Origin: Actinomycetota bacterium
GTDB lineage: Bacteria; Acidobacteriota; Blastocatellia; Chloracidobacteriales; Chloracidobacteriaceae
Reading direction: 5' to 3'
Length of the DNA: 13,044 nucleotides
NCBI GenBank assembly: GCA_013298335.1
Contig: JAAFHI010000025.1
Coordinates: 1 to 13,044, forward strand
Numbering within the stretch: position 1 is the stretch's first letter; each line of letters starts with the position of its first letter. Positions 2,257-9,061 of the stretch are shown one piece after another. Both the position numbers and the translations under genes were made by a program. Below the pieces are notes generated by a model. That model had not been told where the DNA came from. It ran no database searches and saw only the letters and a program-made list of their open reading frames with translations.

Positions 2257-2583
2257 ATGTCGAACTGCACCACCCACGAAAACCACGGCCACGTTCACAG
2301 CGAAAACTGCGGCCATACGCGCATCCAGCACAACGATCACGTCGATTACCTCCACGACGGACATCTCCACCACGGCCACGAGGGCCACGTCGACGAACAC
2401 GTCATCGAAGTCAGCGACATCAACCCGAACGCCTGCGCCCCGGTCGAATGCGGCTGCACCCACGACGACTGCGGCCACGAACTCGTCCCGCACGGCGATC
2501 ACGTCGACCACCTCGTCAACGGACGCCTCCACCATCGCCACGGCGACCACTGCGACGACCACGGCCCGGTGGCGGTGCTGTAA
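2257..2583 (+). CDS. Histidine-rich metal-binding protein with internal duplication
   Basis: The product is 108 aa with 24 His (22%), 7 Cys and many Asp/Glu. It has no signal peptide or membrane segment. A GAAAGGA site seven bases before the ATG fixes the start. Residues 18-48 and 72-102 are two gap-free 31-residue repeats with 17 identities. Both contain CGH, a DHVD motif, L-x-x-G-x-LHH, and a final D-x-H. The linker (49-71) contains a VIEVSDINPNAC stretch and a CGC pair. The density and regular spacing of His, Cys and Asp indicate binding of several transition-metal ions, most likely zinc, as a cytosolic buffer or chaperone. No transporter or enzyme fold is visible, and I do not know an established family name. 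Its position directly behind the SmtB-like regulator suggests metal induction and a role analogous to SmtA metallothionein. That role is inferred. Confidence 0.85.
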   Translation: MSNCTTHENHGHVHSENCGHTRIQHNDHVDYLHDGHLHHGHEGHVDEHVIEVSDINPNACAPVECGCTHDDCGHELVPHGDHVDHLVNGRLHHRHGDHCDDHGPVAVL

Positions 2584-2704
2584 AAGGGTTTTGGGTTTTG
2601 GGTTTTGGGTTTTGGGTTTTGGGTTTTGGGTTTTGGAAAATACTCCCGCGCGGTTAGATTTCCGCAACACCTAAAACCTAAAACCCACCACCCAAAACCC
2701 TTTT
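2582..2704. repeat. Cassette A: (GGGTTTT)7 heptamer array with inverted heptamer arm
   Basis: The left arm, 2582-2636, is AAAA followed by seven exact GGGTTTT units and a final GG. The spacer is 2637-2667. The right arm, 2668-2704, read on the minus strand gives AAAAGGG, TTTTGGG, TGGTGGG, TTTTAGG, TTTTAGG and TG, again with period 7. The outer 14 bases of both arms (2582-2595 and 2691-2704) are perfectly complementary, and the remaining units pair in phase with one or two mismatches each. The left arm begins inside the TAA stop of the His-rich gene. The right arm ends four bases before the larB ATG. The G-runs could form a G-quadruplex in the plus strand. The stem ending in CCCTTTTCTT could also act as a terminator. 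Confidence 0.9.
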
Positions 2705-2708
2705 CTTC

Positions 2709-3458
2709 ATGAACCGAACCGATCTCGAACTTCTTCTGCAATCGTTTCAGCGGGGCGAGCGCTCGCTTGACGAAACGCTATCCCGGCTCGAAGGCTTCCC
2801 GCTCGAAGACCTCGATTTCGCCACCATCGACCACGCCCGCGCCGCGCGGCAGGGTTTTCCGGAAGTCGTCTACGGCGCATCGAAAACCCCGCGCCAGATC
2901 GCCGGAATCGTCGAACGCCTGCTGGTTCGCAATCCGAATGTGCTCGTCACCCGCGCAAGCGCCGAAGCCGCCGCGCTGGTCGCCGACATCGCACCCGACG
3001 CCGTCTTCGATGAAGCAGCGCGAACCATCGTCGTCCGGCGCGATACGACCATTCACGGCGGGGGAACGATTCTCGTCATCTGTGCCGGAACGTCCGATCT
3101 GCCCGTCGCCCGCGAAGCCTTCATCACCTGCGACATCATGGGAAATCACGTCGAACTCGTGACCGACGTGGGCGTGGCGGGCATTCATCGGCTGTTCAGC
3201 CATCGCGAACGCCTGCGCACAGCGCGGGTCGTCATCTGCGTGGCCGGAATGGAAGCCGCCCTGCCGTCGGTCGTCGGCGGACTCGTCGCGGTCCCGGTCA
3301 TCGGCGTCCCGACGAGCGTCGGTTACGGCGCGGCCTTCGGCGGGGTCACCGCCCTGCTCGCCATGCTCAACAGTTGCGCCTCGAACGTCACTGTCGTAAA
3401 CATCGACAACGGGTTCGGCGCGGGCTACGTCGCGTCGCTCATCAATCGGAATGTATGA
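2709..3458 (+). CDS. larB: LarB, pyridinium-3,5-biscarboxylate mononucleotide synthase
   Basis: The product is 249 aa, close to the usual LarB length (about 246). LarB carboxylates and hydrolyses nicotinic acid adenine dinucleotide to pyridinium-3,5-biscarboxylate mononucleotide, the first step toward the nickel-pincer nucleotide cofactor of lactate racemase and other LarA-type epimerases. An N-terminal helical part (about 1-115) carries the family hallmark FPEVVYGASKTP. It is followed by a PurE-like domain with ICAGTSDLPVA, GVAGIHRL, a glycine-rich CVAGMEAALPSVVGGL, and GVPTSVGYG. Cys223 in LNSCAS corresponds to the Cys that forms an adduct with the pyridine ring in the characterised Lactiplantibacillus enzyme (Cys221). 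LarC, LarE and LarA are not in the window, so the pathway must be completed elsewhere. The ATG has no Shine-Dalgarno because cassette A lies directly upstream. Confidence 0.93.
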   Translation: MNRTDLELLLQSFQRGERSLDETLSRLEGFPLEDLDFATIDHARAARQGFPEVVYGASKTPRQIAGIVERLLVRNPNVLVTRASAEAAALVADIAPDAVFDEAARTIVVRRDTTIHGGGTILVICAGTSDLPVAREAFITCDIMGNHVELVTDVGVAGIHRLFSHRERLRTARVVICVAGMEAALPSVVGGLVAVPVIGVPTSVGYGAAFGGVTALLAMLNSCASNVTVVNIDNGFGAGYVASLINRNV

Positions 3459-3568
3459 TTTTCGATTGATGATTGAAGATTGAAGATTTCAAAAACCGAG
3501 AACGGGCTGTTCCGTCGTGAACTCGTCGGTCATCACAATCGAAAATCTTCAATCGAAAATCGAAAATC
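3457..3568. repeat. Cassette B: GATTGAA/GATTTTC heptamer inverted repeat
   Basis: The left arm, 3457-3490, consists of period-7 units: GATTTTC, GATTGAT, GATTGAA, GATTGAA, then a partial GATTTC. The right arm, 3535-3568, read on the minus strand gives GATTTTC, GATTTTC, GATTGAA, GATTTTC and GATTGT. The arms pair in phase at 26 of 34 positions, and the differences are confined to the last three bases of units plus the inner end. The 44-base spacer (3491-3534) has no repeats. The first unit overlaps the TGA stop of larB, and the right arm ends three bases before the AAGAGG ribosome site of the yqeY-like gene. Confidence 0.82.
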
Positions 3569-3584
3569 TCAAGAGGTACGAACA

Positions 3585-4031
3585 GTGGGAATACGTGAAC
3601 AACTGCTCGCCGACATCACGGCGGCAATGAAGGCCAGGGACGCGGCGCGCCTCGACACGCTGCGAATGGTCAAGACCGAACTGCAACGGCAGGAAATCGA
3701 CCTTCAGACACAACTCGACGACGCCGGGATGATCGCCCTGCTCACCAAGCTGCTGAAACAGCGGCAGGAATCGGCGGAGTCCTTCGCCAAGGGCGGACGC
3801 CCCGAACTGGCCGCGAAGGAAACGGCGGAAATCGTCGTGCTCGAAGGCTACCTGCCGAAAGCGATGAGCGAGGAAGACGTCGCCGCCATCGTGGACGAAG
3901 CCATCCGCGAAACCGGCGCGACCACTGCCAAGGACATGGGCAACGTCATGAAGGCCGTGATGGCGAAACTCGCGGGCCAGCGCGTGGACGGCAAGACGGT
4001 CAACGGGCTCGTCCGGGCCAAACTTTCATAA
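3585..4031 (+). CDS. yqeY: GatB/YqeY domain protein
   Basis: The product is 148 aa, the same length as Bacillus YqeY. The GTG at 3585 is chosen because AAGAGG sits eight bases upstream and the protein then starts directly with the family N-terminus GIREQLLADITAAMKARD. A longer frame from a TTG at 3480 would only translate cassette B. An N-terminal helical bundle contains LDTLRMVKTELQRQEID, AMIALLTKLLKQRQESAESFAKGGRPELAAKE-like sequence and VLEGYLPKAMS. The C-terminal helical domain resembles the tail of GatB and ends in KTVNGLVRAKLS. The GatB tail contacts tRNA in the Asn/Gln amidotransferase. Free-standing YqeY proteins are proposed to act on or near tRNA, but no reaction is established. The DUF3006 gene follows after 26 bases. 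Confidence 0.9.
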   Translation: MGIREQLLADITAAMKARDAARLDTLRMVKTELQRQEIDLQTQLDDAGMIALLTKLLKQRQESAESFAKGGRPELAAKETAEIVVLEGYLPKAMSEEDVAAIVDEAIRETGATTAKDMGNVMKAVMAKLAGQRVDGKTVNGLVRAKLS

Positions 4032-4057
4032 TCACCACCCGCGAAAGCGAGGACACG

Positions 4058-4321
4058 ATGTCGAACCAACCGACCGCACAGCATTTCGTCGTGGACGCCA
4101 TTGAAGGCACACTGGCCCGGCTCGTTCTGTACGGCGACGATGCAACCACGTTCGACATGCCGCTCGCGCTGCTGCCTTCCGACACGAAGGAAGGCAGCCA
4201 CCTCGCCGTCACCTTCGCGCTCGACGAACAGGCGCGGCTGCAAGAAGCGGCCAAAGCCAGGGAACTGCTCAAGGAACTCACCGCCGGGACCGACCCGACC
4301 CAGACCGAGTTCCAGTTGTGA
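4058..4321 (+). CDS. DUF3006 domain protein
   Basis: The product is a small acidic cytosolic protein of 87 aa. A GAGGA site lies four bases before the ATG. It opens with the DUF3006 pattern VVDAIEGTLARLVLYGDD, followed by FDMPLALLPSDTKEGSHLAVTF, a short beta-rich core. It ends in a helix rich in Ala, Lys and Glu. DUF3006 proteins have no established function; the fold is probably a small beta barrel with the conserved acidic DxIEG and PxxLLP motifs. It lies between the yqeY-like gene and purM on the same strand, 26 and 25 bases from each, so co-transcription is likely. I see no functional link to purine synthesis. Confidence 0.78.
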   Translation: MSNQPTAQHFVVDAIEGTLARLVLYGDDATTFDMPLALLPSDTKEGSHLAVTFALDEQARLQEAAKARELLKELTAGTDPTQTEFQL

Positions 4322-4346
4322 TTTCAATCCGCTGAAAGCTGAACCG

Positions 4347-5372
4347 ATGATTTCCTACAAAGACTCCGGCGTCGATATCGACGCGGCCAACGAGGCCACC
4401 AGCCGCATCCGCGACCTTGCGCGCGGCACTTTCAACAAACAGGTCCTGACCCAGATCGGCAGCTTCGGCGCGATGTTCCGGCCCGATTTCCGCAACGCCG
4501 AGGACCCGATTCTCGTGTCGAGCGCGGACGGCGTCGGGACCAAGCTCAAGCTCGCCTTCATGACCGGCGTTCACAACACCGTCGGCTACGATCTGGTCGC
4601 GCACTGCGTGGACGACATTCTCGTGCAGGGCGCGCGGCCGCTGTTTTTCATGGACTACATCGCGACCGGCAAGCTGTCGCCCGATGTCGTCGCGTCCCTC
4701 ATCGAAGGACTGGCGCGCGGCTGCAAGGAAGCCGACTGCCCGCTCGTCGGCGGTGAAACGGCGGAGATGCCGGGCTTCTACGCCGACGGCGAATACGACG
4801 TGGCCGGTTTCATCGTCGGATGGGTTGATCGCCCGAAGGTCATCGACGGTTCGCGCATTGCGGTCGGCGACGTACTTCTCGGCCTGCCGTCGATCGGCCT
4901 GCACACCAACGGCTACAGTCTGGCGCGCAAACTCTTCTTCGAAATCGCGGGCTACCAGACCGATACCCACGTCGAAAAACTCGGCTGCACCGCCGGTGAA
5001 GCCCTGCTTGCGCCGCACCGGAACTACCTGCCGTTTCTCGACGCCTCGCTCGACGGCGGCCAGATCAAGGGACTCGCCCACATCACCGGCGGCGGACTGC
5101 TCGAAAACCTGCCGCGCATCCTGCCCGACGGCTGCGGCGCCGAAATCAGACTCGGAAGCTGGCCGGTTCTGCCGCTGTGTGAGCACCTCGTGGAACTCGG
5201 CAGCCTGCCGAACAGCGAGAGCTACCGCGTGTTCAACATGGGCATCGGCATGGTCGTCGCGGTCGCACCGGAAGACGCCGAGGCGCTGCGGAACGACATC
5301 GCCGCGCGGGGCATCGAGGTCTACACCATCGGCCACATCGTCGCGGGCGCGAAAGAAGTGACGCTGGTCTGA
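4347..5372 (+). CDS. purM: Phosphoribosylformylglycinamidine cyclo-ligase (AIR synthetase)
   Basis: The product is 341 aa, a standard PurM length. It catalyses ATP-dependent closure of FGAM to 5-aminoimidazole ribonucleotide, the fifth step of de novo purine synthesis, in the cytosol. The protein starts MISYKDSGVDIDAAN, the usual PurM N-terminus, so the ATG at 4347 is preferred to an open frame extending back to 4101. The PurM/PurL-type ATP-binding signature DGVGTKLK is at 61-68. HCVDDILVQGARPLFFMDY and GGETAEMPGFY (135-145) follow, then the C-terminal domain with GLHTNGYSLARK and HITGGGLLENLPRILP. No other pur gene is visible; purM usually sits beside purN or purF, so its neighbours here are unusual. 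Its TGA shares a base with the ATG of lnt, indicating translational coupling. Confidence 0.97.
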   Translation: MISYKDSGVDIDAANEATSRIRDLARGTFNKQVLTQIGSFGAMFRPDFRNAEDPILVSSADGVGTKLKLAFMTGVHNTVGYDLVAHCVDDILVQGARPLFFMDYIATGKLSPDVVASLIEGLARGCKEADCPLVGGETAEMPGFYADGEYDVAGFIVGWVDRPKVIDGSRIAVGDVLLGLPSIGLHTNGYSLARKLFFEIAGYQTDTHVEKLGCTAGEALLAPHRNYLPFLDASLDGGQIKGLAHITGGGLLENLPRILPDGCGAEIRLGSWPVLPLCEHLVELGSLPNSESYRVFNMGIGMVVAVAPEDAEALRNDIAARGIEVYTIGHIVAGAKEVTLV

Positions 5373-6979
5373 TGGAAAATCAGGAAACGCAAGGGCGCAC
5401 AGACGCAAAGGCGCACAGAAGAACGCTGTTTTTCCTTGCGTCCTTGCGCCTTTGCGCCTTTGCGCTTCTTTCTTCACTCCTGCTCGTGCTGGCCTTTCCG
5501 CCGTTCGATCTGTGGTGGCTCGCGTTCGTCGCGGTCGCGCCGCTCATGTGGGCGGCCACACGGGCGAGCAGCGCACGCAACGGTTTTCTGCTCGGCTGGC
5601 TGACGGGGATCGGCTTCTACTTCGGAAGCTGCTGGTGGGCGACCCATTCGCTCATCGCGTACGGCGGGATTCCGACTGCCCTCGCCTACCTGCTCATCTT
5701 CATCGCCGCCGTCATCGTCGGCCTTCCGACCGGTCTCTTCGGCTGGCTCGTTCACTACACGACGAAACGGAAAAGCACGCTCGGCCTCTGGTGCGCGCCG
5801 CTGTTCTGGGCGGCCACCGAATACTTCCGTGCGGAAGTCATGCAGTTCGGCTGGAATCCGATTGCCAACGCCGTCGCCCTGCACCCAATCCTCATTGCCC
5901 CGGCGCGCTTCGGTGGGAGCTACCTCGTCGGGGCCATACTGGTGATGTTCGCCGCGCTGGCAATTCTTCCTCTTTACGAAAAACATCAGACGGTCAAAGC
6001 CGTGATCGTCGCGGTGTTGCTCGGGGGCGCGCTCTACGGCTCGAATTTCCTCGGACGCAACATCATTTTCAAACCCGGTCCCGAACGGCTGACCGTCTCC
6101 GCCGTGCAGCCGATGGCCCCGATCGAGACCGACAATCCCGCCGATTACGAAGCCGCGCTCGAACGCCAGCGCTCGCTCGCCCGACAGGGTTTGAAGGACG
6201 CGAGGGGAATGAAACTCGTCGTTCTGCCGGAATCGCAGATGGCCATCGACCTGACCGCGCCCGATCCCGAACTGCTCGCCGACATTCGCAGGCTCAATGA
6301 CGACGGTGCCTACGTTTTGAGCAACGCCACGCGCCGCGTCGGGAAAAAATTCACCAATCTGGCCGTGATGTTCCTGCCCGACGGACAGCGCGTGGAATAT
6401 CAGAAAATCAAGCTGATGCCGTTCGGCGAGTACGTCCCGTTCCGCCGCTTTCTTCCCTTCGAGTTTGCGCCCCTTTCGGTCGATGCCGCCGAGGGCGACA
6501 AACTCGTCGTTCTGCCGGTCGGCGAAAACCGCGCGATCGGCGCGTCCATCTGCTTCGAATCGGTTTTCCCGAACCTGCATCGGGCCTTGCGGAAGCAGGG
6601 CGCGGTCGCGTTCATCAACATCGCCAACGACGGATGGTTCGGCCCCACGCCCGGCAGCGACCAGCATTTGCGTCACCTGATTCTGCGCGCCGTCGAGAAC
6701 GACTGCGCCGTCGCCCGTGTGACCAATACCGGAACGAGCTGCTTCATCAACGCGCGCGGCGTGGTCGTTGAAACATTGCCCAAACAACAGCCCGCCGTCG
6801 GTTCGTGGGTCATTCCGACCGCGATCGCAGCGACGGCGGCACCGACACCCTACACCCGCTTCGGTGATGTTTTCGCGTGGCTCTGTCTGGTCGGAACCGT
6901 CATTGCGATGATTCGTACGCTCTGGGTCCGCCTCGCAATATTCATCGAAGACCTCAAGGAACTGGTGGCGGGCGACTGA
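5372..6979 (+). CDS. lnt: Apolipoprotein N-acyltransferase
   Basis: The product is 535 aa. Lnt is an inner-membrane enzyme that transfers an acyl chain from phospholipid to the N-terminal diacylglyceryl-Cys of lipoproteins, completing their maturation in diderms. Several membrane segments span about residues 20-245, including the Lnt-typical LAFPPFDLWWLAFVAVAPL and the FGSCWW region. The periplasmic nitrilase-fold domain follows. The catalytic triad matches E. coli Lnt: Glu287 in LPES, Lys345 in YQKIKLMPFGEYVP, and Cys394 in ICFES. NIANDGWFGPTPG and AVARVTNTGTS are also conserved. A final membrane helix lies near 495-520. The oddity is at the N-terminus. Codons 5-32 are repeat cassette C, adding about 30 residues that include RRTLFFLASLRLCAFALLSS ahead of the normal Lnt start. 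No in-frame ATG follows before the conserved PPFDLWW, and translation is coupled to purM through the TGATG overlap. Confidence 0.95.
   Translation: MENQETQGRTDAKAHRRTLFFLASLRLCAFALLSSLLLVLAFPPFDLWWLAFVAVAPLMWAATRASSARNGFLLGWLTGIGFYFGSCWWATHSLIAYGGIPTALAYLLIFIAAVIVGLPTGLFGWLVHYTTKRKSTLGLWCAPLFWAATEYFRAEVMQFGWNPIANAVALHPILIAPARFGGSYLVGAILVMFAALAILPLYEKHQTVKAVIVAVLLGGALYGSNFLGRNIIFKPGPERLTVSAVQPMAPIETDNPADYEAALERQRSLARQGLKDARGMKLVVLPESQMAIDLTAPDPELLADIRRLNDDGAYVLSNATRRVGKKFTNLAVMFLPDGQRVEYQKIKLMPFGEYVPFRRFLPFEFAPLSVDAAEGDKLVVLPVGENRAIGASICFESVFPNLHRALRKQGAVAFINIANDGWFGPTPGSDQHLRHLILRAVENDCAVARVTNTGTSCFINARGVVVETLPKQQPAVGSWVIPTAIAATAAPTPYTRFGDVFAWLCLVGTVIAMIRTLWVRLAIFIEDLKELVAGD
5385..5467. repeat. 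Cassette C: 8-bp-unit hairpin inside the 5' end of lnt
   Basis: The left arm, 5385-5424, consists of five 8-base units: AAACGCAA, GGGCGCAC, AGACGCAA, AGGCGCAC, AGAAGAAC. After a 3-base loop (5425-5427), the right arm 5428-5467 read on the minus strand gives AAGCGCAA, AGGCGCAA, AGGCGCAA, GGACGCAA, GGAAAAAC. The units pair in phase at 31 of 40 positions. The cassette starts 13 bases after the first base of the lnt ATG and is translated throughout. Confidence 0.85.
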
Positions 6980-6996
6980 TGAATTCAATGGCTTCA

Positions 6997-7024
6997 TTGA
7001 CGCTTCCACACATTCGGTCATAAT
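6997..7024 (+). promoter_or_regulatory. Sigma70-type promoter for the SprT-like gene
   Basis: TTGACG (6997-7002) and CATAAT (7019-7024) are separated by 16 bp. Each hexamer matches the consensus at five of six positions. It lies 18 bases after the lnt stop and would start transcription near 7031, ahead of the ATG at 7055. This suggests that the SprT-like and Trm112-like genes have their own transcript. Confidence 0.6.
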
Positions 7025-7054
7025 GAACCGGCGCACATCCCGCGCGAAGGCCGT

Positions 7055-7825
7055 ATGTTCAAAACCGTCCCACCAACACCGACGCCGTCGGAAGCCGATC
7101 TGGCGGAACTCTTCCGCCGCTGGTATCGCTATATCGCGCCGCGCACCAGGCTGCCCGAAACGATTCACGTCACGTTCTATCCCTACGTCGGCATCAACAA
7201 CACCATCCGCCTCAAGGACGGCGTGCTGCGCGTCAAGCTGTCCGATCTGCTCGCCGACGCGCCGGCCTCGGTGCTTGAAGCGGTCGCGGGCATTCTGTTG
7301 GGAAAACTGTTGCGCAAACCGATTCCGCCGAAGTGCGAGGACGTGTTCCGCGACTACGCCCGATCGCTGCCGGTCCGCAAAGCCGCCGAACATGTCCGTC
7401 GCGAACGCGGCTACAAGGTCGTCTCCGGCGAACAGGGCGAATGGTACGATCTCTCGCCGCTGTTTGACCGTTTGAACGAGGCGTACTTCAACGGTTCGCT
7501 CACCCGGCCGATGCTCACCTGGAGTCGCGCCCGGACGCGCCGCATCCTCGGACACTACGACGCAACCCACCACGCCATCGTCATCAGCCGGACGCTCGAC
7601 GCGCGGACGGTGCCGCCCTTCGTCGTCGAATACGTGCTCTATCACGAGATGCTCCACGTCAAGCATGGCGTCGAACACATCGGCGGTCGGCGGTGCGTGC
7701 ATACGCCCGCATTCCAGGCCGATGAACGTGATTTCGTGGATTACGAACCGGCCATCCACTGGCTGAAAAACTTCGCCGATCTCGGCCCACGCCCGCGGGC
7801 CGTCAAACGCAGAAAGAAATCCTGA
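7055..7825 (+). CDS. SprT-like zinc metallopeptidase
   Basis: The product is 256 aa. The C-terminal half (about 130-256) is a SprT-like/zincin module. It contains LSPLFDRLNEAYFNGSLTRPMLTWSRARTRR-type sequence (given in part), then LGHYDATHHAIVISRTLD, then EYVLYHEMLHVKHG with the zinc-binding HEMLH motif (His197, Glu198, His201). A third ligand candidate is His216 in HTPAFQADERDF. The N-terminal half (about 20-120) has a conserved-looking IRLKDGVLRVKLSDLL segment of unknown role. There is no signal peptide or membrane segment, so it is probably cytosolic. SprT/SPRTN relatives cleave DNA-bound or damaged proteins, but substrate specificity cannot be inferred here. GAAGG lies four bases before the ATG. 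The tail is very basic (RPRAVKRRKKS), compatible with nucleic-acid association. The Trm112-like gene begins 12 bases after the stop. Confidence 0.85.
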   Translation: MFKTVPPTPTPSEADLAELFRRWYRYIAPRTRLPETIHVTFYPYVGINNTIRLKDGVLRVKLSDLLADAPASVLEAVAGILLGKLLRKPIPPKCEDVFRDYARSLPVRKAAEHVRRERGYKVVSGEQGEWYDLSPLFDRLNEAYFNGSLTRPMLTWSRARTRRILGHYDATHHAIVISRTLDARTVPPFVVEYVLYHEMLHVKHGVEHIGGRRCVHTPAFQADERDFVDYEPAIHWLKNFADLGPRPRAVKRRKKS

Positions 7826-7837
7826 CGACGTCCCACC

Positions 7838-8017
7838 ATGCCTCTGACCGAAGCCGACATCGAACTTATCCGCTGCCTCGTCTGCCGCGTTCCCGTGGCC
7901 TTCACGCCCGCCCGCGACGGCCTGCAATGCCCGACCTGCCGCCGGGTCTATCCGATCAAGGATGACCTGCCGCAGATGCTGCTCGACGAGGCTTACATTC
8001 CCAAAGAACAGGCGTAA
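7838..8017 (+). CDS. Trm112-like small zinc-ribbon protein
   Basis: The product is 59 aa from an ATG at 7838, ending in a TAA at 8015-8017. The sequence has CLVC (Cys13, Cys16) and CPTC (Cys31, Cys34), a four-Cys zinc ribbon. RRVYPIKDDLPQMLLDEA follows, which closely matches the Trm112p-like signature (CRxCGRxYPIxDGIPxML) of small bacterial YcaR-type proteins. In eukaryotes and archaea Trm112 activates several methyltransferases that modify tRNA, rRNA and release factors. In bacteria the role is largely unproven. It lies 12 bases after the SprT-like gene and is probably co-transcribed. Its stop codon is shared with the first bases of repeat cassette D, so the last residues could have been altered by cassette insertion. 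Confidence 0.85.
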   Translation: MPLTEADIELIRCLVCRVPVAFTPARDGLQCPTCRRVYPIKDDLPQMLLDEAYIPKEQA

Positions 8018-8094
8018 CACAAAGACACGAAGGCACAAAGACACGAAGGAATTTTAAATAGCCCTGTGTCTTTGTGCCTTCGTGTCTTTGTGTT
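8016..8094. repeat. Cassette D: perfect 29-bp inverted repeat of 8-bp units
   Basis: The left arm, 8016-8044, and the right arm, 8066-8094, are exact reverse complements over 29 bases, with a 21-base AT-rich spacer between them. Each arm is built of 8-base units alternating between CACAAAGA-like and CACGAAGG-like sequences. It overlaps the stop codon of the Trm112-like gene and ends eight bases before the stop of the convergent patatin gene. A long stem at this site could terminate both transcripts. Confidence 0.95.
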
Positions 8095-8102
8095 CTGTCT
8101 TC

Positions 8103-8894
8103 TCACCCGACGGCCAGCGCGACCGTTTCCCGCCCCGAATCAATAAGCGACGTCAGGCCGCTCCGACGAAACAGAATCGTGCCGCGTCCGAGCGTGTCGG
8201 GGGTCGCGATGACGATGGGAACATCGGGATGAGCCCTGCCGATGCGGGCGATCTTGTCGGCGTTCTCGCGGCGGTGTTCGATGCGGTTGGCGATGTCCAC
8301 CACGAGAATCTGTCTGGGTGAAAACGGTTCGGTAAAGAGCCATTCAATCGGGATGCGGTTGTATACCCCGCCATCGATCAAACGGTACGACCGCTCCCCA
8401 TGCACGAACTCGCGCACCGGATAGAACTTCGGAATCGCGACCGCGCCGCGCGTGGCATCGCAGAGCGGGAACGCGGGCAGCCCGCTGTGGAACAGCACTT
8501 CCTCATTCCGAATCAGGTCAAATGCCTGAACGCCGATGCGCGCGATACCGTGGTGCAACCGGTCGGTCGGCGCGCATTCAAGCATGTCGAGGTAGCCGGG
8601 AATGATGCCCGCCCGGCGCTTCAACCGCTGGGCGAGAAACGCGGGCGCGCGCCGCGCCGCGGCCCACGCAATCAACTGTCGCGACGAAAAACTCAGCCCC
8701 AGTTCACGCAGTTTCGGGAGATCAAGCCCGACGCAGCCATAATACGCCGCAATCAGCGCCCCGACGCTCGACCCGACAATTTCCGACACAACAAAGCTGC
8801 GTTCGGCAAGGCCTTCGAGAATGCCGACGTGCGCGACACCGCGTGCGCCACCGGCACCGAGAACGAGACTGACTGGGAGGGAGGGGTCAAGCAT
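8103..8894 (-). CDS. Patatin-like phospholipase family protein
   Basis: The product is 263 aa. All catalytic elements of the patatin/RssA fold are present: the oxyanion-hole loop GAGGARG (13-19), the nucleophile elbow GSSVG with Ser43, and the dyad Asp174 in DGGVYNRIPI. These enzymes hydrolyse acyl ester bonds of phospholipids or other lipids; the substrate here is not predictable. There is no clear signal peptide, so it is probably cytosolic or membrane-peripheral. Middle residues (about 72-125) form a helical, Arg-rich cap. The ATG at 8894 is the only Met ahead of the oxyanion loop, and it lacks a Shine-Dalgarno: the upstream bases are C/T-rich because they belong to the flank of cassette E. 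The gene is convergent with the Trm112-like gene and divergent from maeB. Confidence 0.92.
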   Translation of the reverse strand: MLDPSLPVSLVLGAGGARGVAHVGILEGLAERSFVVSEIVGSSVGALIAAYYGCVGLDLPKLRELGLSFSSRQLIAWAAARRAPAFLAQRLKRRAGIIPGYLDMLECAPTDRLHHGIARIGVQAFDLIRNEEVLFHSGLPAFPLCDATRGAVAIPKFYPVREFVHGERSYRLIDGGVYNRIPIEWLFTEPFSPRQILVVDIANRIEHRRENADKIARIGRAHPDVPIVIATPDTLGRGTILFRRSGLTSLIDSGRETVALAVG

Positions 8895-8903
8895 GGGGGA
8901 AGA

Positions 8904-9050
8904 GGGATCAGGTGTCGGGGATCAGAAGGTTCTGGGTTCTGGGTTCTGGGTTCTGGGTTCTGGGTTCTGGGTTCTGAAGTGAGCGTCACGCGGTTTGTTG
9001 CCTCGGTCAATCTTTTTCAACCTGATCCCTGATCCCCGACACCTGTTCCC
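8904..9050. repeat. Cassette E: GGGTTCT array nested in a 22-bp inverted repeat
   Basis: The outer arms 8904-8925 and 9029-9050 are reverse complements at 21 of 22 positions and are themselves built of period-7 units such as GGGATCA and GGTGTCG. Inside the left arm lies a tandem array, 8928-8975, with six exact GGGTTCT copies plus a leading GGTTCT. The interior from 8976 to 9028 contains no matching AGAACCC array. The cassette fills most of the intergenic space between the patatin gene and maeB. Confidence 0.9.
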
Positions 9051-9061
9051 TTTCCCCGCTG

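What the first reader, a model, noticed from the sequence alone, without database searches (positions are those of the whole stretch)
2582..9050. Five unrelated-sequence cassettes share one architecture: 7- or 8-bp units in inverted arms
At 2582-2704, 3457-3568, 5385-5467, 8016-8094 and 8904-9050 there are inverted repeats whose arms are made of tandem 7-mers (GGGTTTT, GATTGAA/GATTTTC, GGGTTCT) or 8-mers (GCGCAAAG-like, CACAAAGA-like). In the first four, unit n of one arm pairs with unit n of the other, so even imperfect units keep phase. The unit sequences differ completely between cassettes, so this is not one dispersed element but a recurring construction. Heptameric tandem repeats (STRR) are established in heterocystous cyanobacteria, but an obligatory inverted arm and a variable unit sequence are not part of that description as far as I know. 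No transposase or reverse transcriptase is present. Replication template-switching, a MITE-like mobile hairpin, or selected terminator/processing structures are all possible.
Basis: partly seen in the sequence, partly recalled or inferred. Interest (0 to 1): 0.75.

Follow-up and report, generated by a model that had tools for sequence, protein, structure and literature searches.

The report
Repeat-built hairpins at bacterial gene ends
This bacterium places long hairpins made of short repeated words right where one gene stops and the next begins; the words differ but the architecture recurs, also in unrelated bacteria, and the hairpins may fold out of the message so that the next gene can still be read.

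Summary
In 99 own contigs (413 kb), 39 inverted repeats have arms of period 7, 8 or 9; ten shuffles give no periodic one. Arms fall into some 14 word families, several shown to be dispersed. The left arm is the G-rich one in 43 of 46, same-family neighbours face inward 44 times, outward never, and edges facing a gene's 3' end sit within -8..+9 bp of the stop codon in 34 of 37 cases. The kind is partly in print: paired hepta-/octamer sites in Geobacter (PMC2700814) and convergent GGGAATC pairs near stop codons in Xanthomonas (PMC4692102). New here: many non-G4 words in one genome, stop-codon anchoring, one arm shared across phyla, and one orthologous junction (lpxA|lpxI) with different words in different genera and none in others. 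Arms of one cassette are no more alike than arms of different cassettes, so local copying is not supported. Best reading: dispersed intercistronic hairpins that fold out of the mRNA; where they fill the gap, the Shine-Dalgarno stays in the upstream gene and folding brings it near the next start. Four of 11 lpx cases allow another start. How they spread is unknown.

The parts
2582..2704 (.). Cassette 1: arms 2582-2636 (GGGTTTT) and 2665-2704, between the stop of the His-rich ORF (2257-2583) and the ATG of the AIRC-domain (larB-like, name recalled) gene at 2709
   Evidence: predicted hairpin starts in the stop codon and ends 4 nt before the ATG
3457..3568 (.). Cassette 2: arms about 3457-3489 and 3536-3568 (GATTGAA/GATTTTC), between the larB-like stop (3458) and yqeY (start taken at about 3585)
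5385..5467 (.). Cassette 3: arms about 5387-5419 and 5434-5467 (RCGCAARG octamers), after the purM stop (5372); if lnt starts at the ATG that overlaps the purM stop, the cassette lies in the first codons of lnt
8016..8094 (.). Cassette 4: perfect 29-bp arms of CACAAAGACACGAAGG, between convergent Trm112-like (stop 8017) and patatin (3' end 8103)
8897..9057 (.). Cassette 5: outer arms 8897-8925 and 9029-9057 (GGGATCA/GGTGTCG type) between divergent patatin and malic enzyme genes
8928..8976 (+). GGGTTCT array (7 units) inside the loop of cassette 5, without inverted partner

Best explanation
The five are members of a genome-wide class of intercistronic hairpin cassettes: two facing arms, each typically about four to five tandem copies of a 7-, 8- or 9-nt word (by eye), with the G-rich arm first, set flush against a stop codon. 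Shown: many word families in one genome; fixed polarity; stop-codon anchoring; one arm sequence shared across phyla; cassettes with different words, or none, at one orthologous junction. Inferred: the cassettes spread as repeats by an unknown route and persist inside operons because the RNA hairpin folds out of the message. Where the cassette fills the gap between stop and start, the Shine-Dalgarno (SD) remains in the end of the upstream gene and the hairpin brings it near the start codon (a split ribosome-binding site, as known for phage T4 genes 25 and 38). A tandem-word stem is robust because any unit pairs with any other, so the word itself is free to drift.
For: Class and anchoring: 39 periodic inverted repeats vs 0 periodic in ten shuffles; 44 inward, 0 outward, 2 direct; 3' edge within 10 bp of the stop in 35 of 44 periodic vs 7 of 34 non-periodic inverted repeats, P 2e-7. 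Turnover: lpxA|lpxI read in 21 of 41 searched genomes of one family; three congeners carry GAAGGAT-type cassettes, 8 of the other 18 carry cassettes with other words (GTGATGA in three, TTTCAGG, GGGATGA, GAACGAT/GAAGGAT, AAGTTCA, GGGGAC-type), two have an ATGA stop/start overlap, i.e. an empty site. Split site, lpx: in 7 of 11 cassette genomes the lpxI frame is closed inside the cassette; in 6 of these the ATG right after the cassette is the only in-frame ATG/GTG/TTG, and no SD precedes it (duplex energies 0.1 to 2.8); the lpxA end keeps GGAG or GGGG in 11 of 11 (-6.1 to -7.6) and predicted folding cuts the distance from 70-205 to 5-21 exterior nt. Own genome, 14 tight cassettes: the frame is closed inside the cassette in 14 of 14, another in-frame start upstream in only 1; SD before the start 0/14 vs 30/57 controls; SD-like end of the upstream gene 12/14 vs 20/57, strongest in the last 20 nt, gone beyond 40 nt. 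Precedent: passages of PMC3014915.
Against: In 4 of 11 lpx genomes (G319, G317, G320, G342) the lpxI frame is open through the cassette from a start in or beside the left arm with a good SD (-5.9 to -6.5), so a cassette-coded N-terminal extension would do; G317 and G320 have no ATG directly before the conserved N-terminus. G321 has two further GTG candidates inside. Convergent (4) and divergent (4) paired cassettes cannot serve a downstream start. The lack of SD before tight starts follows largely from the pyrimidine-rich right arm. The upstream SD signal is also raised in loose cassettes (9/15), and other controls are higher than 20/57 (gaps under 15 nt 11/21, over 120 nt 28/63), so it may be a relic of older tight spacing. 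Among 6 lpx genomes without cassette shown the glycine codon is GGA/GGG in 3, so its retention is suggestive only. At fabZ|lpxA, starts next to the conserved N-terminus lack SD in the 4 of 8 genomes where my motif found lpxA, but one has a GTG with SD inside the cassette, and no upstream energy was computed. Own-genome starts come from my own simple gene caller; the anti-SD was generic. No mobiliser found.
Confidence: 0.42

Rival explanations
1. Mobile MITE/REP-like hairpins moved in trans by a transposase, tolerated at gene ends, with no role in expression; the words are internal iterations of their terminal repeats.
For: Families with like arms at unrelated sites and unrelated loops; empty sites; an identical 31-bp arm on a Candidatus Thiodictyon (Gammaproteobacteria) plasmid, again beside a stop codon; Y1 transposases in the own genome (5 matches) and relatives.
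Against: Eight Y1-transposase loci read: none has a periodic cassette beside the gene, four have a non-periodic palindrome close by. No target duplication was demonstrated. Loops do not travel with the arms (by eye).
Confidence: 0.3
2. Selected 3'-end structures: bidirectional intrinsic terminators, exonuclease barriers or RNase III processing sites that punctuate operons.
For: Begin at the stop codon; 19-68 predicted pairs in the 11 lpx gaps, 32-64 in the window's five; several have A-runs before and T-runs after the stem (by eye); in G342 three successive junctions around lpxA and lpxI carry cassettes.
Against: Arms also lie in 7 of 41 divergent gaps; a strong terminator a few nt before the lpxI start would cut an operon; not all families end in a T-run; no compensatory signal between arms.
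Confidence: 0.3
3. G-quadruplex regulators, as proposed for GGGAATC repeats in Xanthomonas.
For: Same polarity, pairing and stop-codon proximity as that paper reports.
Against: Only 15 of 137 arms have four G-tracts of three or more; 0 in the GATTGAA (14), AGTAGTC (13), GGAATGC (8), GAGAATT (7), CACAAAGA (7), ATGAATT (6) and GCGCAAAG (2) families.
Confidence: 0.05
4. By-product of replication slippage plus template switching at each site.
For: Some arms are long pure arrays (about 17 units in L020), typical of slippage.
Against: The same variant order (GGAATGC GGAATGC GGAATAT CGAATGC) recurs at 5 places; own arms no more alike than foreign arms; fixed polarity.
Confidence: 0.05
5. In-frame insertions: the cassette lies within the first codons of the downstream gene, which starts at the old site beside the upstream stop and gains a repeat-coded N-terminus.
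For: Frame open through the cassette with an SD-preceded start in 4 of 11 lpx genomes; possible for lnt in the window.
Against: Frame closed inside the cassette in 7 of 11 lpx genomes and in 14 of 14 tight own-genome cassettes.
Confidence: 0.08

Closest known systems
Paired 'global regulator binding sites' classes 1-3 of Geobacter metallireducens (PMC2700814; passages and supplement captions seen)
   Same: Tandem octa-/heptanucleotides (GTTGCTYN, TCTCCGTS[Y], MTYCTGA) in pairs on opposite strands; 24 pairs, 21 locations and 8 pairs; variable distance stated for classes 1 and 2
   Different: There a few unit classes, read as possible IHF/HU sites; here about 14 words, stop-codon anchoring, and different words at one orthologous junction
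GGGAATC-type heptamer repeats of Xanthomonas, and of Nostoc (PMC4692102; abstract and passages seen)
   Same: Heptamers, mostly four units, convergent pairs (70 and 75 in two Xanthomonas genomes, few in Nostoc), sense strand near stop codons, antisense upstream of ORFs
   Different: G4-capable words were studied there; here most arms cannot form a G4
STRR heptamers of cyanobacteria (recalled) and TAACTGA repeats of Beggiatoaceae (PMC4679880, abstract and passages seen)
   Same: Intergenic tandem heptamers, patchy across phyla
   Different: Direct arrays; one inverted set among 170 TAACTGA sets
REP/RAYT and MITE repeats (PMC3733652, abstract and passages seen)
   Same: Dispersed palindromes, mostly downstream of genes, some supplying the stop codon
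   Different: GTAG/CGTC tag; the Y1 genes read here have no periodic cassette beside them
Split ribosome-binding sites of phage T4 genes 38 and 25 (PMC3014915, passages seen)
   Same: A structure between SD and AUG restores working distance (22 to 5 and 27 to 11 nt)
   Different: Two single phage genes and short structures; here a possible genome-wide consequence of repeats

Membership tests
Paired tandem hepta-/octamer sites (Geobacter, Xanthomonas type) | tandem 7-8-mers in facing pairs on opposite strands, variable spacing, many copies | tested here: met
   44 inward, 0 outward, 2 direct neighbours; 39 cassettes in 413 kb, 9 of them of period 9
Xanthomonas-type G-rich heptamers | sense strand by the stop codon, antisense upstream of ORF | tested here: met
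   91 of 113 arms with complete context point away from the nearest gene, 22 toward it
Xanthomonas-type G-rich heptamers | G-quadruplex capacity | tested here: not met
   15 of 137 arms
Xanthomonas-type G-rich heptamers | under-represented between divergent ORFs | tested here: inconclusive
   arms in 7 of 41 divergent, 51 of 220 tandem, 8 of 36 convergent gaps
Geobacter class 1-3 sites | bound by IHF/HU or another global regulator | not testable with these tools
   a proposal in PMC2700814
REP/RAYT | elements flank the Y1 transposase gene | tested here: not met
   0 of 8 Y1 loci have a periodic cassette beside the gene; periodic arrays lie over 1 kb away in L284 and L286
REP/RAYT | GTAG or CGTC tag at one end of the hairpin | not tested
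   no counted test; by eye the printed cassettes show no common tag
MITE | target-site duplication and TIRs of a transposon in the genome | not tested
   empty sites exist but the overlap of stop and start leaves a duplication unresolved
Intrinsic terminator | compact GC stem followed by U-run and loss of downstream transcription | tested here: inconclusive
   T-runs in some families by eye; loops of 4-509 nt; no transcript data
Split ribosome-binding site | SD too far from the start in sequence, near it after folding | tested here: inconclusive
   7 of 11 lpx junctions with cassette fit with a closed frame; 4 of 11 allow another start with SD; 14 own-genome tight cassettes have closed frames and no SD before the start
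Split ribosome-binding site | destabilising the structure lowers translation | not testable with these tools
   needs a reporter assay

The most novel reading that the evidence does not exclude
[quoted passage not shown] Many genes of such genomes would then be started from split ribosome-binding sites, and 7-9-nt tandem words would be the solution because any unit pairs with any other.
Probability: 0.28. Interest if true: 0.8.

Novelty: new variant of a known kind. Interest (0 to 1): 0.6.

Why it matters
Paired heptamer/octamer repeats have been reported genome by genome under different names (global regulator sites, G4 repeats) with different guesses. A shared architecture, a stop-codon anchor, different words at one orthologous junction, and one arm found exactly or nearly so in acidobacteria, Anaerolineae, Caldithrix, a cyanobacterial and a gammaproteobacterial plasmid suggest one phenomenon. 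If the fold-out reading holds, it explains how operons tolerate long repeats between SD and start, and makes split initiation testable on many genes.

Tried and rejected
Local template switching and compensatory pairing: own arms no more alike than foreign arms. G4: 15 of 137 arms. Reverse transcriptase: no PF00078 match in the own genome, 90.5% complete. RAYT: see membership test. Plasmid search with the octamer cassette: no match. Octamer in 49 of the 80 named loci's genomes: 0 of 49, and only the own genome among 39 searched relatives incl. itself, so the cross-phylum claim rests on the GAAGGAT arm alone; its reversed control rang in 5 of 297 and 1 of 49 genomes. Rfam: nine matches, all below gathering scores, eight of them microRNA models on cassettes 1, 3 and 4, taken as chance hairpin matches. 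Orthologous borders of the window itself: the best named relative (L069) aligns at DNA level only over the malic enzyme, so the lpxA|lpxI junction found through a GAAGGAT hit was used; it was chosen because one genome had a cassette there. One search gave nothing (bad BLAST parameters) and was rerun. Dropped rows: contig C577 (picked because of a hit) left out but kept with the window; 5 arms inside predicted genes (among them right arms of cassettes 2 and 3) and 19 with incomplete context left out of the 113; a false antisense gene call of the window replaced by hand by the three Pfam-supported genes. Literature on the novel reading: the listings held the T4 review and no paper on repeats as split initiation sites; only open-licence papers are held, and the translational-coupling review PMC12548453 was seen in the listing only.
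Full report
What is there. The window is a whole 13,044-bp contig of a 5.1-Mb, 1093-contig draft genome. Its closest named match at the malic enzyme is an uncultured Chloracidobacterium (74%), so it is taken as an acidobacterium (inference). All five cassettes are present. The fifth is a GGGATCA/GGTGTCG-type inverted repeat at 8897-9057 with an unpartnered GGGTTCT array in its loop. Ten ORFs around them by Pfam: ArsR, a His-rich ORF with no match, AIRC (larB-like), YqeY, DUF3006, AIR synthase (purM), apolipoprotein N-acyltransferase (lnt), SprT-like, Trm112-like, patatin.

More than chance. In 99 contigs of the same genome picked by number (413,345 non-N bases) 39 inverted repeats of score >=18 have arms of period 7 (27), 8 (3) or 9 (9); ten dinucleotide shuffles gave 3 inverted repeats, none periodic; extrapolated, about 400 per genome. 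Eighty loci of other organisms around the malic enzyme (1.32 Mb) held 2 of period 7 and 1 of period 8 at that threshold: Geobacter GTTCAAG twice (L090) and an acidobacterium ACGCAAAG (L097).

Anatomy. Fourteen word consensi found 137 arms in 100 contigs plus the window. Same-family neighbours within 400 bp were 44 inward, 2 direct, 0 outward; 45 arms were solo. The left arm has more G than C in 43 of 46 periodic inverted repeats against 20 of 40 non-periodic ones (P 5e-6). Printed cassettes show like arms within a family, unrelated loops, and a recurring variant order at five sites; loops run from 4 to 509 nt. Within-cassette arms are not more alike than arms drawn from other cassettes of the family (8 families, 40 pairs; 7265 of 20000 permutations reach the observed sum). 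This argues against copying at the site and gives no covariation support for selection on the individual stem.

Position. Of 113 arms with complete context 91 have the G-rich strand pointing away from the nearest gene, 22 toward it. For 37 paired cassettes, 34 of 37 edges that face a gene's 3' end lie between -8 and +9 bp of the stop codon; 37 edges facing a start are spread (median 42). Non-periodic inverted repeats of the same contigs lie within 10 bp of the stop in 7 of 34 cases, periodic ones in 35 of 44. Arms occur in 51 of 220 tandem, 8 of 36 convergent and 7 of 41 divergent gaps. Gene calls are from a simple hexamer scorer of my own.

Spread. The octamer occurs at 22 places in the own genome and in none of 38 relatives, nor in 49 named genomes of other groups. 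The GAAGGAT arm (29 nt, up to 2 mismatches) is in 20 of 297 genomes of the phylum, with 329 overlapping matches in the own genome, 240 in G003 and 147 in G264; the reversed control rings in 5 of 297. It is in 3 of 49 named genomes (Anaerolineae L123, Anaerolineales L132, Caldithrix L135; up to 1 mismatch; control in 1 of 49). On plasmids, 14 records matched at E up to 10, most of them weakly; the notable ones are Candidatus Thiodictyon pTs485 (31 of 31 bases, 6 places), Kovacikia (93%, 9 places) and Chlorohelix (92%). The Thiodictyon cassette again begins beside the stop codon of its upstream gene. Samples of relatives G001 and G003 carry heptamer arrays with shared and other words; samples of five small relatives of genus g3 (20-40 kb each) show no period-7 or -8 tandem array, though two show a period-9 inverted repeat of another word.

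One junction in many genomes. A GAAGGAT hit in G221 lies between lpxA and lpxI in a fabZ-lpxA-lpxI order (Pfam). The region was searched in 41 genomes of that family (39 matched) and the junction read in 21 including G221. G221, G321 and G341 (one genus) have GAAGGAT-type cassettes. Of the other 18, 8 have cassettes with other words: G319, G339 and G342 (GTGATGA), G331 (TTTCAGG), G317 (GGGATGA), G323 (GAACGAT/GAAGGAT), G322 (AAGTTCA), G320 (GGGGAC-type); G322 and G342 are of one genus, so the 11 cassette genomes are of 8 genera. Ten have none: G336 and G346 have an ATGA overlap of stop and start, G328 and G027 short gaps, G338 no clear arms, G015 another palindrome, G316 a different longer array, G023 a long gap, G329 and G324 inserted open frames (by eye). 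In 8 cassette genomes the neighbouring junctions were read as far as the stretch went: clear cassettes at fabZ|lpxA in 4 of 8 and after lpxI in 2 of 8.

How it may work. The lpxA end keeps GGAG or GGGG in 11 of 11 cassette genomes (-6.1 to -7.6), a site which in the two overlapping genomes lies 7-9 nt before the lpxI start and serves as SD there (role inferred). Folding reduces the linear distance to the start beside the conserved N-terminus from 70-205 to 5-21 exterior nt. The glycine codon that supplies it is GGA or GGG in all 11, against 30% of Gly codons in lpxA and lpxI of 8 of these genomes and 3 of 6 in genomes without cassette; the genera share ancestry, so this is retention, not independent gain. 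In 7 of 11 the lpxI frame is closed inside the cassette; in 6 of them the ATG after the cassette is the only start and lacks an SD. In the other 4 (G319, G317, G320, G342) the frame is open through the cassette from a start with an SD in or beside the left arm, so a repeat-coded extension is possible. In the own genome, 14 tandem cassettes whose right arm ends within 20 nt of the called start have the frame closed inside the cassette in 14 of 14, SD before the start in 0 of 14 (controls with 15-120-nt gaps 30 of 57) and an SD-like end of the upstream gene in 12 of 14 (controls 20 of 57; shorter gaps 11 of 21, longer 28 of 63); the signal is gone beyond 40 nt upstream. Looser cassettes show both (9/15 and 9/15). 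T4 genes 38 and 25 are the precedent (PMC3014915). This reading does not cover the convergent and divergent cassettes, and the spread of the repeats needs a separate, unknown agent.

Known or new. Paired tandem octamers and heptamers on opposite strands are in print for Geobacter metallireducens (PMC2700814), and convergent heptamer pairs near stop codons for Xanthomonas (PMC4692102). A survey of prokaryotic satellites notes heptamer-derived families, e.g. GATAGRA in Chloroflexus (PMC6749651, two of five parts read). I therefore file the finding as a new variant of a known kind: many non-G4 words, stop-codon anchor, different words at one orthologous border, a cross-phylum arm, and a testable split-initiation consequence.

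Noticed in passing
L284, L286, L287, L289 (beside Y1 transposase genes); also L041, L052, L034, L015, L053: Non-periodic, REP-like palindromes occur in the genome and in G003; some lie beside Y1 transposase genes and look alike between contigs (by eye), suggesting a REP/RAYT-type system separate from the cassettes.
   Followed up: partly
window 5372-5480: If lnt starts at the ATG overlapping the purM stop, the octamer cassette is translated as the protein's N-terminus, including the hydrophobic stretch LASLRLCAFALLSSLL.
   Followed up: no
L267 (G316): The lpxA|lpxI junction there carries a different tandem array of about 20-bp units, another kind of intercistronic repeat.
   Followed up: no
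L283 (G324), L268 (G329): Open frames are inserted between lpxA and lpxI in two genomes (in G324 it looks like a HicB/HicA pair, by eye only).
   Followed up: no
L052:1471-1982: One intergenic region holds arms of four different families, three facing the same way, as if cassettes had been nested or eroded.
   Followed up: partly
L066:4251-4457: The right arm of a GAAGGAT cassette seems to lie inside a coding region, so that the loop spans a start codon (by eye).
   Followed up: no
G282: The reversed control pattern matched 16 times in this genome, so it may have an array family of the mirror word.
   Followed up: no
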